6,250 nucleotides of DNA, taken from Candidatus Hodarchaeota archaeon (GTDB lineage: Archaea; Asgardarchaeota; Heimdallarchaeia; Hodarchaeales; YT1-039). Numbering within the stretch: position 1 is the first letter of the stretch; each line of letters starts with the position of its first letter. Below, one piece after another: positions 2,125-6,250 of this stretch. The position numbers and the translations under genes are program-made. The notes under the pieces were generated by a model. That model made no database searches. It saw nothing but the letters and a program-made list of their open reading frames with translations, and was not told the DNA's origin. The DNA is taken from positions 1 through 6,250 of the forward strand of contig JAEOTF010000414.1 in the NCBI GenBank assembly GCA_016840025.1. The letters run 5' to 3'.

Positions 2125-2485
2125 GATAAATCACCAGTTCACATATAGCATAATTAGATTACAAATTTTTATCTTTTATTAATAAAGAATACAAAAAATC
2201 TAATGGTTTTCTGTGTCGTTGAGGTAATCTGCGATAATTGAAAGATTTTTTCAATATTTCCATTTATCTCGTTGATTTTGACTCTTCTATGCCGCAACCA
2301 CTGCTTGAATATCTTAACTTATCCTGATAATTTAGTCACTTTATCTGTCAATCTATTATTATCATTAAAATAATCAAAAATAACCTCTCTTTACAAACAT
2401 TTTGGGACCTTTTTGACCGTATTATTTCCACCCTATACACTCCCATTCAATACGATTTTTCAAGTCCGCTGAAAATTGTATTTTC
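2125..2485. other. Divergent intergenic region, AT-rich, no gene seen
   Basis: This 361-bp gap lies between the divergent cupin gene and the 123-codon gene and should hold both promoters. On the minus strand, AT-rich candidates for the cupin promoter are TGCTATATGT (2150-2141) and TTTATTAATAAA (about 2186-2175). The second fits better if the transcript includes the GGTGAT site. For the plus-strand gene only a weak TATA-like stretch (ACGATTTTT, about 2452-2460) lies at leaderless spacing. I see no RNA gene, strong hairpin or convincing open frame. The length is generous for two promoters. Confidence 0.45.
2130..2135 (-). promoter_or_regulatory. Ribosome binding site deciding the TTG start of the cupin gene
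   Basis: GGTGAT on the minus strand is complementary to the archaeal 16S tail core (AUCACC) and lies five bases before TTG 2124. It supports translation from this non-ATG codon. It also implies a leadered transcript. Confidence 0.6.
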
Positions 2486-2857
2486 ATGTCATTAGAGTTG
2501 ATTAATAAGAAGATTGAGGAAGCTAAAGCTAAATTTGAGCTTCTTCAAACCGACGAAAGTTCACTCGATTTTTCCGAACCCATCACACTACTCCAAGATG
2601 CATTCAATGAAAGTCAGAAACTAAAAATACTCGATTATCCTATCCAAGCGGAAATTCTTACTCTTCTCGCTGATTCGTTCGGTTTAGAGGGAGAACGTGC
2701 ACAAGATCCTGATAAGCTAAAATCAGCAATCTGGCAGGGTGAGAGACTTTTTCGTATCTATGACAACAAGCTTACTTCGTTAGAATATTATCCAAAACGG
2801 ACAGAGATCCGCCAAAAAATCGTGAAATGGAAAGATCTGCGACTTAGCCTTTTATAA
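2486..2857 (+). CDS. Hypothetical helical soluble protein, 123 residues
   Basis: I do not recognise this protein. It is highly charged, has no signal peptide or membrane segment, and its composition suggests an all-helical fold. One helix runs through INKKIEEAKAKFELLQ near the N-terminus. Amphipathic stretches around residues 34-70 (ITLLQDAFNESQKLKILDYP, then AEILTLLADSFGLEGERA) vaguely recall helical-repeat proteins such as TPR. No catalytic motif is visible. The ATG at 2486 has no ribosome site, so a leaderless transcript is plausible. The stop at 2857 lies only 16 bp from the palindrome marking the right end of the iscB element. The element therefore landed just beyond this gene. Whether the present C-terminus (KWKDLRLSLL) is native or was altered by the insertion cannot be judged without a homologue. 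Confidence 0.6.
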   Translation: MSLELINKKIEEAKAKFELLQTDESSLDFSEPITLLQDAFNESQKLKILDYPIQAEILTLLADSFGLEGERAQDPDKLKSAIWQGERLFRIYDNKLTSLEYYPKRTEIRQKIVKWKDLRLSLL

Positions 2858-2873
2858 GACAAAGCCAAGAAAA

Positions 2874-2898
2874 CCCACTTATCGCTTGCATGGGTGGG
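2874..2898 (-). repeat. Right-end imperfect palindrome of the iscB element, overlapping the iscB stop codon
   Basis: This 25-nt sequence begins CCCAC and ends GTGGG on the minus strand. It folds as five base pairs, two C-A mismatches, two more base pairs (A-T and T-A) and a 7-nt loop (GCAAGCG). On the opposite strand the mismatches become G-T wobbles. Imperfect subterminal hairpins of this kind are the TnpA recognition structures in IS200/IS605 elements. It matches the left palindrome in length and in its terminal five bases on each side. The last iscB codons (His-Pro-Cys-Lys-Arg) and the TAA stop at 2879-2881 lie inside it. Confidence 0.65.
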
Positions 2899-4255
2899 AT
2901 GAATTGGCTGGATCAGGTTCTATCACTTGACAAATACCTTTTCGCCAACAGATAGGTGTAACCAATGAAGTTTTAACAGGTTTTGCTAGTCCATCTAACT
3001 TAATATACAGTCCATAATTTTGTATGCCTTTCACCAGATATTTTTTACCTTGAAAAAGCACAATATCTTTGGGTTGGAACTTATACCTTTGTCTGCGGAT
3101 ATTAACCCTCCCTTTGTTTGTCTTATGACCTCTATACTTCCGTAGGTTTTCTTTATTCAGGGTCTTGTTTCTGGTTCGTCTGCCACAAAACAACTCCTGT
3201 CCACTTGCTTTCTTGCCTGTACGGGTGTCTAGGTATTTTGCGTCATAAAACTTCTGCAAAGACCGATTATTGCGTCTAATCTGCTCAAAATTCGTTGGAA
3301 TTGCGCGTTTTTGAGTTGTGCCGTTAGCAATGACAAATGCATCGTTAGTATGAGATTTTGCAAGTTTTAACCTTTTCCGTTTCATCTTGGTCAGGTAACC
3401 GTAGGTGTGATCGCAGTCTAAGGCATTGATTAATCTCCATCGCACAATAGACATGAAAGTTTCAGGTTTAAAGGACTTTAATTTTGGGTGCCAACCATAC
3501 AAAACTCCGTTTTTCTGATGATTCTTTGGTGTATGGCAGTTAATACAGAGTGTAATCAGATTGCTTGGTCTATCACTTCGATCTCCTTTCCAAAAACCGA
3601 TGTGATGAACTTCTAGGATTTTTTCTTTCTTCTGCTTCGTGCAGTTAGGATTCTGACATTCATGATGATCTCGGTGCAAAATATATTCACGTAAATTCCA
3701 AAAACCTGCTTGATTGCCTTCTTGATAGCCTGAGCCTTCAATGTCGGGATTTTTGATCTTCTGGATGTCAAAATTGGCGGCTTCGGTAGTTATGCATGTG
3801 ATCGGCAGAATAGATTTAAGTAACTCTATGAAACGGATATGAGAGTCTAACTTGTGTTGAATGGAAGGAGCTAACCACCCTTCCTTTCTATTTCTATTTT
3901 GGAATCTTGGTTTTCGGTGTCGCAATTGATTCTTTCGTTGTCTTCTGTACATGGCTCTTTCGCTTATTCTCTCTGATATACCTTCAAGAAGACGTAATAC
4001 TCCTGCAAATAGTTCTTCACCTTTTGTAATTACCGAAAAACCAATGTAGGTATAACCCGAATCAATTCCAAGTTCAATCTCTTGTTTGTAACCACTCGAA
4101 CCAAAATTGAGTTGAATTACAAACGGATCATGTCTGACAATCTTCGCTTTATTCGATTGGAGAAGTAACCGTGCCTGACGTGGAGTAGTTGGCATTATAG
4201 GTTTTCCATGTCGATTCAAGACGAAGACTTTGTTCATTATTTTTTTTACATTCAT
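2879..4255 (-). CDS. iscB: IscB, omega-RNA-guided HNH/RuvC DNA nuclease
   Basis: This is a complete IscB of 458 residues, within the usual 400-500 range. In order: an N-terminal PLMP-type domain (VFVLNRHGKPIMP at 10-22, with PIMP replacing PLMP, and the ARLLL helix); RuvC-I with D65 in ELGIDSGYTYIGF; an arginine-rich bridge helix at about 95-117 (RAMYRRQRKNQLRHRKPR); RuvC-II with E158 (TTEAANFD); an HNH domain at about 195-250; RuvC-III with H302-x-x-D305; and a basic C-terminal target-interaction region containing RYKFQPKDIV and KGIQNYG. The HNH domain shows C200/C205 and C237/C240 as zinc ligands, and H217-H218, N232 and H241. All catalytic residues are present, so the nuclease is probably active. 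Family knowledge: IscB uses omega RNA to cut double-stranded DNA beside a target-adjacent motif and is ancestral to Cas9. ATG 4255 gives the longest form. ATG 4237 (residue 7) is equally plausible because family similarity begins there. Confidence 0.95.
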   Translation of the reverse strand: MNVKKIMNKVFVLNRHGKPIMPTTPRQARLLLQSNKAKIVRHDPFVIQLNFGSSGYKQEIELGIDSGYTYIGFSVITKGEELFAGVLRLLEGISERISERAMYRRQRKNQLRHRKPRFQNRNRKEGWLAPSIQHKLDSHIRFIELLKSILPITCITTEAANFDIQKIKNPDIEGSGYQEGNQAGFWNLREYILHRDHHECQNPNCTKQKKEKILEVHHIGFWKGDRSDRPSNLITLCINCHTPKNHQKNGVLYGWHPKLKSFKPETFMSIVRWRLINALDCDHTYGYLTKMKRKRLKLAKSHTNDAFVIANGTTQKRAIPTNFEQIRRNNRSLQKFYDAKYLDTRTGKKASGQELFCGRRTRNKTLNKENLRKYRGHKTNKGRVNIRRQRYKFQPKDIVLFQGKKYLVKGIQNYGLYIKLDGLAKPVKTSLVTPICWRKGICQVIEPDPANSSHPCKR

Positions 4256-4270
4256 TATTTTTCGTTTCTT

Positions 4271-4526
4271 AAATTCTGGTCAGGCTAAAAGAAAGCCTGG
4301 CTCCCGAAAGGGAGTAGTCCACATCGCCAATGTTACTAGAGGTTTCCTTTGGTTGTCAGCAACACTTCGCCTAGCCCTGTAGCGATGTTTAATCACTGAC
4401 CGCAGAGTGTCGGACTTGTGGAGTATCCGACAGTGCCTATACATTCTCCGTAACGACAGGCTAATCAACAGGGCTTGAAATCACTTCCAAGCCCACAGAT
4501 CACTAGCGTCTGTGGGTAGTTGACAA
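4271..4526 (-). ncRNA. Omega RNA scaffold of IscB
   Basis: The segment upstream of iscB is richer in G and C than its surroundings and dense in perfect helices on the minus strand. A left-end hairpin occupies 4516-4492. A 10-bp stem with a GUGA (GNRA) tetraloop occupies 4494-4471. TGTCGGA (4432-4426) pairs with TCCGACA (4414-4408). ACATCGC (4388-4382) pairs over a long range with GCGATGT (4327-4321). CTCCC (4314-4310) pairs with GGGAG (4305-4301). CAGGCT (4299-4294) pairs with AGCCTG (4286-4281). Also, AGCCCTGT (4475-4468) is fully complementary to ACAGGGCT (4380-4373), suggesting a pseudoknot or an alternative fold. Location, length (about 240 nt) and stem density match IscB omega RNAs, which lie 5' of iscB and carry their guide at the 5' end. 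The guide would start beyond 4526. Exact RNA ends are not known. Transcription could come from readthrough of the same-strand gene at 4608-5114. Confidence 0.85.
4492..4516 (-). repeat. Left-end palindrome of the iscB element
   Basis: An 8-bp perfect stem (CCCACAGA with TCTGTGGG) encloses a 9-nt loop (CGCTAGTGA), 25 nt in total, the same length as the right-end palindrome and with the same CCCAC/GTGGG termini. In IS200/IS605 elements such a hairpin near the left end is bound by TnpA as single-stranded DNA. Here it also forms the first hairpin of the omega RNA. Its last three bases (GGG, 4494-4492) are shared with the next stem. Confidence 0.7.
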
Positions 4527-4546
4527 TACTTAATTTTCGTGGATAG
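4527..4546 (-). other. Predicted omega-RNA guide segment (element-flanking DNA)
   Basis: By the IscB rule that the guide is the host sequence just outside the left end, the guide would read, on the minus strand, about 20 nt ending in ATTAAGTA next to the element. It falls in the duplicated downstream flank of the secreted-protein gene. The position depends on the inferred boundary at 4526/4527 and on guide length. Confidence 0.45.
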
Positions 4547-4607
4547 TACCATTTCAAGGACTAAGATCTTCTAGTTCTATTATCTCCAGATAATATACTT
4601 AAGCATG
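4527..4607 (-). repeat. Duplicated downstream flank, copy 1 (pairs with 5391-5475)
   Basis: This segment, 3' of the first secreted-protein gene, aligns with the segment 3' of the second gene. Shared blocks include TTTTCGTGGA, AGTTCTATTATCTCC and ATAATAT, with scattered substitutions and small indels. The duplication unit therefore covers noncoding DNA as well as the gene. Copy 1 contains a palindrome, ATTATCT-CC-AGATAAT (4579-4594), degenerate in copy 2 (5446-5461), which might act in termination. No open frame is evident. Confidence 0.7.
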
Positions 4608-5114
4608 TCAATTTATCATTGATTTTCGCCTATATTGTATTAGAATAGCCAGCAGACTAATGATGAATGGTAATACAACAAACTCTTGCCCTTCAAACTC
4701 GGGTATATCTGGATCAGGACCTATAAAATCCCCGAGATCGGGGAATAAATCGAGAGTAAATGGATCTCCAGTCTCTACTTGGAAGAACACTGCAGGCCAA
4801 CTAAGAACATGGGGAGGAATGTCCCAGATCAATGTGTTTCCATCTACACCCGCCTCAAATTGACTGAGTTCTGTATAATCAGAACCATCTGATTGCTGGG
4901 ATAGACGTAAATAATACGAATAAGCCAGAGGTTGAGGCGTAGCTGCGTAAGTTACAACGACTGTAGCAAAGCTAGTGTCAATGTAAACGATCTCCGCTTC
5001 GAGAGGAAATCCTTCAGTTGGATTATCGTTATAATGGAAGTTTGGAATCGCATATCCAGTTATTACTAAATTTACCAACATGACTATTAATAAGAGATAC
5101 ACTAATTTTCGCAT
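4608..5114 (-). CDS. Secreted surface protein with PEF-CTERM-like tail, copy 1 of a tandem pair
   Basis: This 168-residue protein starts with a classical signal peptide: MRK, a hydrophobic core to about residue 19, and a likely cleavage after GYA (22). A beta-rich extracellular domain of unknown fold follows; the block PPHVLSWPAVFFQVET is identical in both copies. The tail has IPEFE (PEF at 138-140), QEF at 143-145, a short hydrophobic segment (about 146-159) and the basic cluster RRK (162-164). This arrangement resembles the PEF-CTERM signal, which in archaea is thought to be processed by an archaeosortase that anchors the protein to the surface. The protein might instead simply stay anchored by its C-terminal helix. 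The ATG at 5114 is preceded at four bases by AGGTGG. It is about 70% identical by eye to the next gene. No enzymatic motif is visible, so surface display or binding is an inference. Confidence 0.78.
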   Translation of the reverse strand: MRKLVYLLLIVMLVNLVITGYAIPNFHYNDNPTEGFPLEAEIVYIDTSFATVVVTYAATPQPLAYSYYLRLSQQSDGSDYTELSQFEAGVDGNTLIWDIPPHVLSWPAVFFQVETGDPFTLDLFPDLGDFIGPDPDIPEFEGQEFVVLPFIISLLAILIQYRRKSMIN

Positions 5115-5118
5115 ATAT

Positions 5119-5124
5119 CCACCT
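5119..5124 (-). promoter_or_regulatory. Shine-Dalgarno site of secreted-protein copy 1
   Basis: AGGTGG lies four bases before ATG 5114. The same site with the same spacing precedes copy 2, and the surrounding TCAAAAAT...GAT context is conserved. Both starts are therefore well supported. Confidence 0.7.
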
Positions 5125-5390
5125 AATTTTTGACATTTTTTATCTAACTATAACTTGATGGTTTAATTAATTGAATTATTAATCTTCTGTTAGGTATACT
5201 TTGTACAACTATAAAAAGGAAAACTGCTTGGGAAAAAGAATCAATGTATTGTAAAGGAAAATATGGTAACATATTTAGTAACCAGAACCGTTTTACAGGC
5301 TTTTTACGACCATAACTAACAATATACGGTAGCTTGTTTCCTTGGTTTGGGCGAACGATTGAAAACATTAATATCAAATATAATAACGTT

Positions 5391-5475
5391 TACTTAGTCC
5401 TTTTCGTGGACAGTGCCATTTTAAGGATTAAGCTCTTTTAGTTCTATTATCTCCGCATAATATCACTTAAACGTG
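5391..5475 (-). repeat. Duplicated downstream flank, copy 2 (pairs with 4527-4607)
   Basis: This is the partner of the segment downstream of copy 1. Both begin TACTTA and run through TTTTCGTGGA and AGTTCTATTATCTCC to the gene stop. Copy 2 has a short insertion (TAGTCCTTTT where copy 1 has TAATTTT) next to the position where copy 1 meets the iscB element. This copy shows the flank without the element. Confidence 0.7.
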
Positions 5476-5991
5476 TCAGTTGTTCATACATTTTCGCCGA
5501 TGCTGAACCAGAATAGCCAGTAGGCAAATGGCAAACGGTAATACAACAAACTCTGGACTTTCAAACTCGGGGAGTATATCAATATCAGGACCCACAAATA
5601 TATCTGGATCAGGACCGGGGAATAAATCGAGAGTCATACCCATTTCCCATGTCTCTACTTGGAAGAATACTGCAGGCCAACTAAGAACATGGGGAGGAAG
5701 ATACCAGATCAAGGTGTCACCATCTACAACCGCATCAATACGCATAAGTTCTGTAGGATCAAACCCATCTGGGAACTGAGATAGACGTAAATAATACTCA
5801 AAAATCGGTTCAGGCGTGAGTGCGTAAGTTACAACGACCGTACCATAGCTAGTATCAATGCTAACGATCTCCGCAGGAGGAGGAAATCCTTCGTTCGGAT
5901 TATCATCATAATGGGTGCTTGGATTCGCATATCCAGTTATTGCTAAATTTACCAACATAACTATTAATGAGAGATATACTAATTTTCGCAT
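5476..5991 (-). CDS. Secreted surface protein with PEF-CTERM-like tail, copy 2 of a tandem pair
   Basis: This 171-residue paralogue of the downstream neighbour has a nearly identical signal peptide (20 of the first 22 residues match) and likewise ends its signal in GYA. The extracellular domain is beta-rich, and its most conserved part is LPPHVLSWPAVFFQVET. A Pro/Asp-rich linker (GPDPDI, GPDIDI) leads to LPEFESPEF with two PEF motifs, at 141-143 and 146-148. The second directly abuts the hydrophobic segment (about 149-162), which is followed by RRK (165-167). This is a better PEF-CTERM-like signal than in copy 1. The gene is not recognised beyond this architecture. It is transcribed toward copy 1, with about 360 bp between them, so each copy may have its own promoter. 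ATG 5991 is supported by AGGTGG at four bases. Surface anchoring through an archaeosortase is inferred from family knowledge. Confidence 0.78.
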   Translation of the reverse strand: MRKLVYLSLIVMLVNLAITGYANPSTHYDDNPNEGFPPPAEIVSIDTSYGTVVVTYALTPEPIFEYYLRLSQFPDGFDPTELMRIDAVVDGDTLIWYLPPHVLSWPAVFFQVETWEMGMTLDLFPGPDPDIFVGPDIDILPEFESPEFVVLPFAICLLAILVQHRRKCMNN

Positions 5992-5995
5992 ACAT

Positions 5996-6001
5996 CCACC
6001 T
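5996..6001 (-). promoter_or_regulatory. Shine-Dalgarno site of secreted-protein copy 2
   Basis: AGGTGG lies four bases before ATG 5991, identical in sequence and spacing to the site of copy 1. Confidence 0.7.
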
Positions 6002-6015
6002 CATTTTTGAGAAAA

Positions 6016-6074
6016 TTTAACTATTTATCGCTTTTATTACACTATAATTTAATTATTTATCGTTTTTATCACTA
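6016..6074. repeat. Short imperfect tandem repeat in the copy 2 promoter region
   Basis: Two units of about 28 bp, at 6016-6044 and 6048-6074, share TTTAA-C/T-TATTTATCG-C/T-TTTTAT and a CACTA ending, offset by 32 bp. On the minus strand each unit contains CGATAAATA, a good archaeal TATA core. The proximal one is about 30 bases before ATG 5991, leaving room for a short leader with the AGGTGG site. The repeat may be duplicated promoter or operator sequence, or simple AT-rich slippage. Confidence 0.45.
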
Positions 6075-6236
6075 GATAATGTAACTAACACCAATTTTCT
6101 CAATTCACCGATTTTGTAAGTTACAGTCTCACACTCTACAAATCTCTTGTGTTGGATTTTTAAATGGAAGATTCTACGGTTTAGTCTGATGAGGTCTTTT
6201 TAGGTCTCAATCACCTATATAACATTCGCCTATCTC

Positions 6237-6250
6237 ATGAAACGTCTTCA
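6237..6250 (+). CDS. Possible start of a further gene cut by the window edge
   Basis: An ATG at 6237 opens a frame (Met-Lys-Arg-Leu) that runs off the right edge after four codons. CTATATAA at 6215-6222 lies upstream and could be a TATA box, though it is closer than ideal for a leaderless start. The rest of 6075-6236 shows no gene. This call is weak and needs flanking sequence. Confidence 0.15.

What the first reader, a model, noticed from the sequence alone, without database searches (positions are those of the whole stretch)
2874..4526. Archaeal IscB system: intact nuclease plus omega RNA with no transposase
All RuvC (D65, E158, H302, D305) and HNH (H217-H218, N232, H241, zinc cysteines) residues are seen, and a well-structured RNA lies directly upstream. 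No tnpA is present. The surrounding genes look archaeal, and IscB is better known from bacteria. An intact but transposase-less unit suggests either recent mobilisation in trans or retention for another role, such as element maintenance by cutting empty sites.
Basis: partly seen in the sequence, partly recalled or inferred. Interest (0 to 1): 0.8.

Follow-up and report, generated by a model that had tools for sequence, protein, structure and literature searches.

The report
Asgard archaeal IscB element lacking transposase
This is a real, intact-looking RNA-guided DNA-cutting gene and its guide RNA inside a small mobile element of a probable Asgard archaeon; lacking its own transposase is usual for this family, so it is a good new example rather than a new kind of system.

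Summary
Window 2879-4255 (-) encodes a 458-aa IscB (NCBIfam NF040563, 336 bits, cut-off 175). A full-length HEARO/omega RNA (RF02033, 107 bits, gathering score 83) lies directly upstream at 4312-4524. The named RuvC and HNH residues are invariant in 27 aligned sequences. No tnpA was found in the window. Comparison sets the ends more exactly: 2856-4524, 1669 bp, with ATAAA next to the right end at the spacing seen in autonomous relatives L025 and L027. The guide would come from the left flank, and the rejoined empty site puts that target beside ATAAA, as expected of an empty-site cutter.

The host is probably an Asgard archaeon, but 14 of the 120 listed hits are already named Asgard IscBs, and a missing transposase is usual: 17 of 155 related loci have an adjacent tnpA, and PMC9755519 reports the same. 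I read it as a non-autonomous ISC element moved in trans, its nuclease kept by selection. Own-genome copies, mobility and cleavage are untested. New member of a known kind.

The parts
2879..4255 (-). iscB, 458 aa RNA-guided RuvC/HNH endonuclease
   Evidence: NF040563 336.3 bits (cut-off 175); PF14239 RRXRR and PF01844 HNH; catalytic residues invariant in 27 rows; solved IscBs are the top fold matches of a moderate model
4312..4524 (-). omega RNA (HEARO, RF02033), full length 1-211
   Evidence: 107 bits, gathering score 83; fold z = -3.8
4485..4524 (-). left end of the element, GTCAACTACCC and subterminal hairpin; also the 5' end of the omega RNA scaffold
   Evidence: homology between multi-copy Asgard elements starts at or within about 7 bases of this G and flanks are unrelated; DNA fold z = -2.93
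2856..2908 (-). right end: GCCAATTCATC-CCCAC-loop-GTGGG-TTTTCTTGGC hairpin (2864-2908) and 8 further nt; overlaps the 3' end of iscB
   Evidence: same layout in relatives with and without tnpA; DNA fold z = -1.42 only
2851..2855 (-). ATAAA, candidate target-adjacent motif (TAM) in the right flank
   Evidence: ATAAA lies 18-23 nt behind the right-end hairpin in 14 of 31 relatives with a recognised hairpin, 3.0 expected from control bins; in the window 18 nt behind GTGGG (16 by the script, which drew the stem two bases longer)
4525..4544 (-). left flank, inferred guide part of the omega RNA transcript
   Evidence: position 5' of the scaffold, as in known IscB omega RNAs (recalled); sequence; function inferred, guide length not known

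Best explanation
The thing is a 1669-bp non-autonomous ISC-type element of the IS200/IS605 superfamily, in a probable Asgard archaeon. It carries an intact-looking IscB and its omega RNA but no TnpA. Shown: gene, RNA, ends by comparison, ATAAA beside the right end, and purifying selection on tnpA-less IscBs of another Asgard subgroup. Inferred: a TnpA encoded elsewhere recognises the two terminal hairpins and moves the element as single-stranded DNA. The omega RNA takes its guide from the left flank. IscB with this RNA then cuts the chromosome copy from which the element has left (guide target followed by ATAAA), so that repair from a sister copy restores the element. The cut favours keeping the element, not the host.
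For: IscB and omega RNA identity. Ends: flanks are unrelated while homology starts at or near GTCAAYTACCC and, in the pair L247/L252, stops right after ATAAA. The right end of tnpA-bearing relatives L025 and L027 has the same TTTTC-13 nt-ATAAA spacing as the window (read by eye). ATAAA behind the hairpin: 14 of 31 against 3.0 expected (58 of 155 loci were given to it, and some are near-copies). Rejoined flanks place the guide target next to ATAAA. Related tnpA-less Asgard elements are multi-copy: G177 has 36 HEARO matches, 28 over the cut-off, and one Y1 transposase match, which sits directly before a second long ORF that I read as tnpB (no family search). dN/dS of 12 IscBs from G175-G178 is 0.10-0.22 in all 66 pairs. 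A broken tnpA stands directly behind an iscB in Asgard genome G007.
Against: No tnpA or second copy could be sought in the window's own genome, so mobility of this copy is not shown. No empty site was found (viral contigs, 0 exact matches). The right hairpin is not strong by itself. 17 of 31 right ends lack ATAAA in the 32 nt examined, and of the stricter pattern's 7 of 58 loci two (L016, L017) show no such hairpin. dN/dS was measured in a different IscB subgroup (about 43-48% identical to the window's), not in the window's clade.
Confidence: 0.7

Rival explanations
1. Immobile relic: the element lost tnpA and no transposase in the cell can move it; iscB is intact only because too little time has passed.
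For: No tnpA in the window; in G175 and G176 no Y1 transposase was found despite many copies, so some Asgard copies may be stranded. The closest relative P0002 does not share the window's C-terminal tail, so the exact junction may be young.
Against: The iscB frame is intact with all catalytic residues. P0003-P0005, 76-78% identical, share the kind of tail that in the window is encoded by the right-end hairpin, so a tnpA-less layout seems old. IscBs of tnpA-less elements in another Asgard subgroup show dN/dS of 0.10-0.22.
Confidence: 0.16
2. Host-exapted nuclease: the unit is kept at this locus for a host role such as defence or regulation, and no longer behaves as an element.
For: Intact nuclease without transposase; exaptation of OMEGA nucleases is known for others (recalled).
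Against: Complete element ends and the ATAAA junction are retained. No conserved neighbourhood was found: the flanking 123-aa ORF had no match in 227 genomes of the phylum (an empty answer without a positive control).
Confidence: 0.08
3. Bacterial contig: the unit is an ordinary bacterial IscB.
For: IscBs of the same subfamily, about 60% identical, occur in bacteria.
Against: In a quick tree of 126 rows the window falls in a 42-row clade (SH-aLRT 98) with all 15 rows labelled Asgard and no labelled bacterium; 26 rows there carry no label. Neighbouring genes look archaeal.
Confidence: 0.04

Closest known systems
ISC transposons / IscB with HEARO omega RNA (IS200/IS605 superfamily), e.g. OgeuIscB (7xht), TbaIscB (9k30)
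   Same: IscB family and catalytic residues, HEARO RNA directly upstream, terminal hairpins, candidate TAM next to the right end
   Different: No tnpA; host is a probable Asgard archaeon; 17-28% identity to the solved IscBs and IsrB in the ten best fold alignments
Autonomous iscB-tnpA elements in L025 (Thermodesulfobacteriota) and L027 (Planctomycetota)
   Same: Same right-end layout and TTTTC-13 nt-ATAAA spacing; IscB 60% identical
   Different: They carry a long tnpA frame between iscB and the right end
Asgard IscBs already annotated by NCBI (Odin-, Heimdall-, Thor-, Hodarchaeota; P0008, P0011, P0025, P0084)
   Same: Same clade as the window, 62-68% identity

Membership tests
IscB | Scores above the curated cut-off of the IscB family model | tested here: met
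   NF040563 336.3 bits, cut-off 175
IscB | Split RuvC with inserted HNH, catalytic residues and zinc cysteines | tested here: met
   invariant columns in A1, 27 rows; HNH Pfam at 200-246
IscB | N-terminal PLMP motif | tested here: met
   present as PIMPT, M21 P22 T23 invariant; PLMP domain named in PMC9755519
IscB | Omega RNA (HEARO) directly upstream | tested here: met
   RF02033 at 4312-4524, 107 bits
IscB | RNA-guided cleavage next to a TAM | not testable with these tools
   needs purified protein and RNA
ISC / IS200-IS605 transposon | Encodes a Y1 tyrosine transposase TnpA | tested here: not met
   none in the element or window; so described as non-autonomous, not filed as an autonomous ISC element
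ISC / IS200-IS605 transposon | Subterminal hairpins at both ends, no target duplication | tested here: inconclusive
   hairpins at both ends and shared right-end layout, but right hairpin z only -1.42; no empty site held to test duplication
ISC / IS200-IS605 transposon | Mobility: copies at unrelated sites | tested here: inconclusive
   own genome not held; seen for related Asgard elements in G177
Type II-D Cas9 | CRISPR array beside the nuclease | not tested
   no array finder was run; one search lists no array-like repeat family in 2400-6250, and the protein scores as IscB

The most novel reading that the evidence does not exclude
An old IscB lineage that lives mainly in Asgard archaea has, in the window's subclade, dropped its transposase for good and persists as a family of nuclease-plus-guide elements, moved by foreign TnpA and kept in place by cutting empty sites; in some Asgard genomes related elements have multiplied, with omega-RNA-only satellites about as common as the nuclease-bearing copies.
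Probability: 0.35. Interest if true: 0.5.

Novelty: new member of a known kind. Interest (0 to 1): 0.3.

Why it matters
It adds a well-bounded archaeal IscB element with a predicted guide, target and ATAAA motif, so the empty-site hypothesis can be tested on an Asgard enzyme. Asgard genomes with tens of omega RNA copies and few or no transposases found are a natural place to ask how transposase-less OMEGA elements spread and why their nuclease stays under selection. It changes no view of what IscB is.

Tried and rejected
Own-genome search for other copies or a tnpA: not possible, no genome is held. Empty site by flanking gene: the 123-aa ORF at 2486-2857 had no match in 227 genomes, and the CinA-like gene matched 190 of 227, the matches listed at no more than 43% identity (list cut), so I found no close relative with the empty site. 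Search for the rejoined site in viral contigs: 0 exact matches. Paralogous copy as empty site: the gene at 4608-5114 is duplicated at 5476-5991 and the clear homology stops about ten bases from the left end of the element, but the sequence left of the second copy gave no repeat match to the right flank, so it is no clean empty site. Guide matching elsewhere in the window: one 3-mismatch match, which I take as chance (2 matches in all including the site itself, mean 0.23 expected, 3 of 200 shuffles with as many). Plasmid and phage collections: 84 and 24 records, all below 60% identity. AlphaFold model: moderate (pLDDT 65.8, pTM 0.57), used only to support the IscB fold. Omega-RNA-only copies 'outnumbering' iscB: a first thought, not borne out; of 21 G177 omega RNA loci checked (of 36), 10 have a full iscB, 1 a 30-residue stub and 10 none. 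Literature: of papers holding 'IscB' and 'Asgard' (8, 7 listed) I read passages of three; none of those passages treats Asgard IscB elements as such. Kapitonov 2015 is not held; Altae-Tran 2021 and Weinberg 2009 are recalled only.

Full report
What is there. The window carries on its minus strand a 458-aa reading frame at 2879-4255. It scores 336 bits against NCBIfam's IscB model, cut-off 175, and matches Pfam RRXRR and HNH. Upstream, at 4312-4524, is a full-length match to Rfam HEARO, 107 bits against a gathering score of 83; HEARO RNA is the omega RNA of IscB (PMC9755519, passages read). A predicted structure of moderate quality (pLDDT 65.8) has solved IscB and IsrB chains as its ten best matches.

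Where the element ends. In related elements the left end begins with GTCAACTACCC or GTCAATTACCCC. Among twelve regions taken from Asgard genome G177, homology between copies starts at that G or up to about 7 bases before it, and the outer flanks are unrelated (in some pairs the alignment starts a little inside). At the right end, relatives show TTCATC or TTCCTC, a hairpin, and in part ATAAA; the pair L247/L252 loses homology right after ATAAA, while by eye other G177 copies have ATGA or GTGA there. Of 58 loci examined (of 155 fetched, mostly the closest), 31 had a recognisable right-end hairpin and 14 of these had ATAAA within 32 nt, all at 18-23 nt; control bins further out gave 3.0. Some of the 14 are near-copies of each other. 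A stricter pattern found 7 of 58, two of them (L016, L017) without such a hairpin, against a shuffle rate of 0.005 per locus and 0 on the opposite strand. In the window this places the element at 2856-4524, 1669 bp, with ATAAA at 2855-2851 on the minus strand, 18 nt behind GTGGG; the script drew the window's stem two bases longer and so gives 16. ATAAA is also the motif I recall for the bacterial enzyme KraIscB-1; that comparison comes from no call.

No transposase, and this is usual. No tnpA was found in the window. With a tnpA HMM built from the fetched loci, 17 of 155 related loci (L001-L155) had a tnpA directly behind iscB: 10 long ones (L025, L027, L032, L033, L037, L083, L085, L088, L089, L103) and 7 short or broken ones (L038, L055, L087, L090, L091, L092, L151) (some loci end soon after iscB, and several viral ones are near-copies). 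PMC9755519 reports that only a few HEARO nucleases are associated with TnpA and that Altae-Tran and colleagues found them only sparsely near TnpA (passage read). In L025 and L027 the right end follows tnpA and has the same TTTTC-13 nt-ATAAA spacing as the window. The window element thus looks like such an element with tnpA taken out. In the window the right-end hairpin codes for the last residues of IscB (ANSSHPCKR); P0003, P0004 and P0005, 76-78% identical, have the same kind of tail, but P0002 (81%), P0006 and P0007 have not.

Host and lineage. The CinA-like neighbour is 66% identical to a protein from a Promethearchaeota MAG and at most 45% to the other listed hits. The gene cut off at 3-500 best matches digeranylgeranylglycerophospholipid reductase, below the cut-off (138.9 of 580 bits), as expected of a piece. 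In a quick maximum-likelihood tree of 126 IscBs (the 120 listed hits and six locus proteins; a seventh, L001, was dropped for an internal stop) the window lies in a clade of 42 rows (SH-aLRT 98) that holds all 15 rows labelled Asgard and no labelled bacterium; 26 rows there have no label. Three euryarchaeal IscBs form a separate group. In 227 genomes of the phylum of G001, a genome reached through a Hodarchaeota contig, 18 had an IscB match at E up to 0.001 (several weak) and 14 a HEARO match, 11 over the cut-off; none of 14 control genomes rang for HEARO. Only G001 held a long match like the window's (63%); the other long matches are 33-50% identical.

How it probably works. G177 has 36 HEARO matches, 28 over the cut-off, and one Y1 transposase match that sits in front of a long frame I read as tnpB. 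Of 21 of its omega RNA loci checked, 10 have a full iscB downstream, one a 30-residue stub and 10 none; two of the latter, fetched also as L251 and L255, are 94% alike over 385 bases with the same kind of ends. So in a related Asgard genome, elements without tnpA have multiplied, which asks for a transposase acting in trans. In genome G007 a broken tnpA still stands behind an iscB. Twelve IscBs from G175-G178, none with a Y1 match nearby, have dN/dS of 0.10-0.22 in all 66 pairs. They came from 18 oriented loci; the script dropped six, among them omega-RNA-only copies, the copy with a stop (L248) and L260, whose open iscB frame it missed. So the nuclease is kept by selection in that subgroup. 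Rejoining the window's flanks puts the guide target directly before ATAAA, the arrangement an empty-site cutter needs. Cleavage, guide length and mobility remain inferred.

Novelty. Fourteen of the 120 listed hits already bear an NCBI name 'RNA-guided endonuclease IscB' with an Asgard organism, and a 2026 survey mentions IscB-HEARO among archaeal hits taken for type II-D (PMC12988326, passage read). Searches for IscB with archaea, Asgard and related terms, and for Asgard with OMEGA terms, listed no paper whose title concerns Asgard IscB elements; this covers only the open-licence library. The finding is a sound new member of a known kind.

Noticed in passing
4534-5156 and 5401-6033: Tandem duplicated small secreted-like genes (168 and 171 aa, 70% identical) whose C-termini resemble PEF-CTERM sorting tails (recalled; no Pfam or NCBIfam match). 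One homologue outside the window was found (57%). The clear homology of the two copies stops about ten bases from the element's left end.
   Followed up: partly
2486-2857: 123-aa ORF without Pfam or NCBIfam match; its stop codon straddles the right-end junction (the last two bases come from the element), and the rejoined site would give the same stop (read).
   Followed up: partly
G177: L265, L266, L268, L270, L273, L275, L277, L279, L280, L283: Omega RNA copies without an iscB downstream, 10 of 21 checked in this Asgard genome; candidate satellite elements.
   Followed up: partly
L254, L246, L249, L255 against L247, L252: Within one Asgard genome two right-end types occur, followed by ATGA/GTGA or by ATAAA (by eye), suggesting IscB copies with different target motifs side by side.
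   Followed up: no
L163 / L230 (G007:C160): Asgard iscB followed by a broken tnpA, a near-complete ISC layout in an archaeon.
   Followed up: partly
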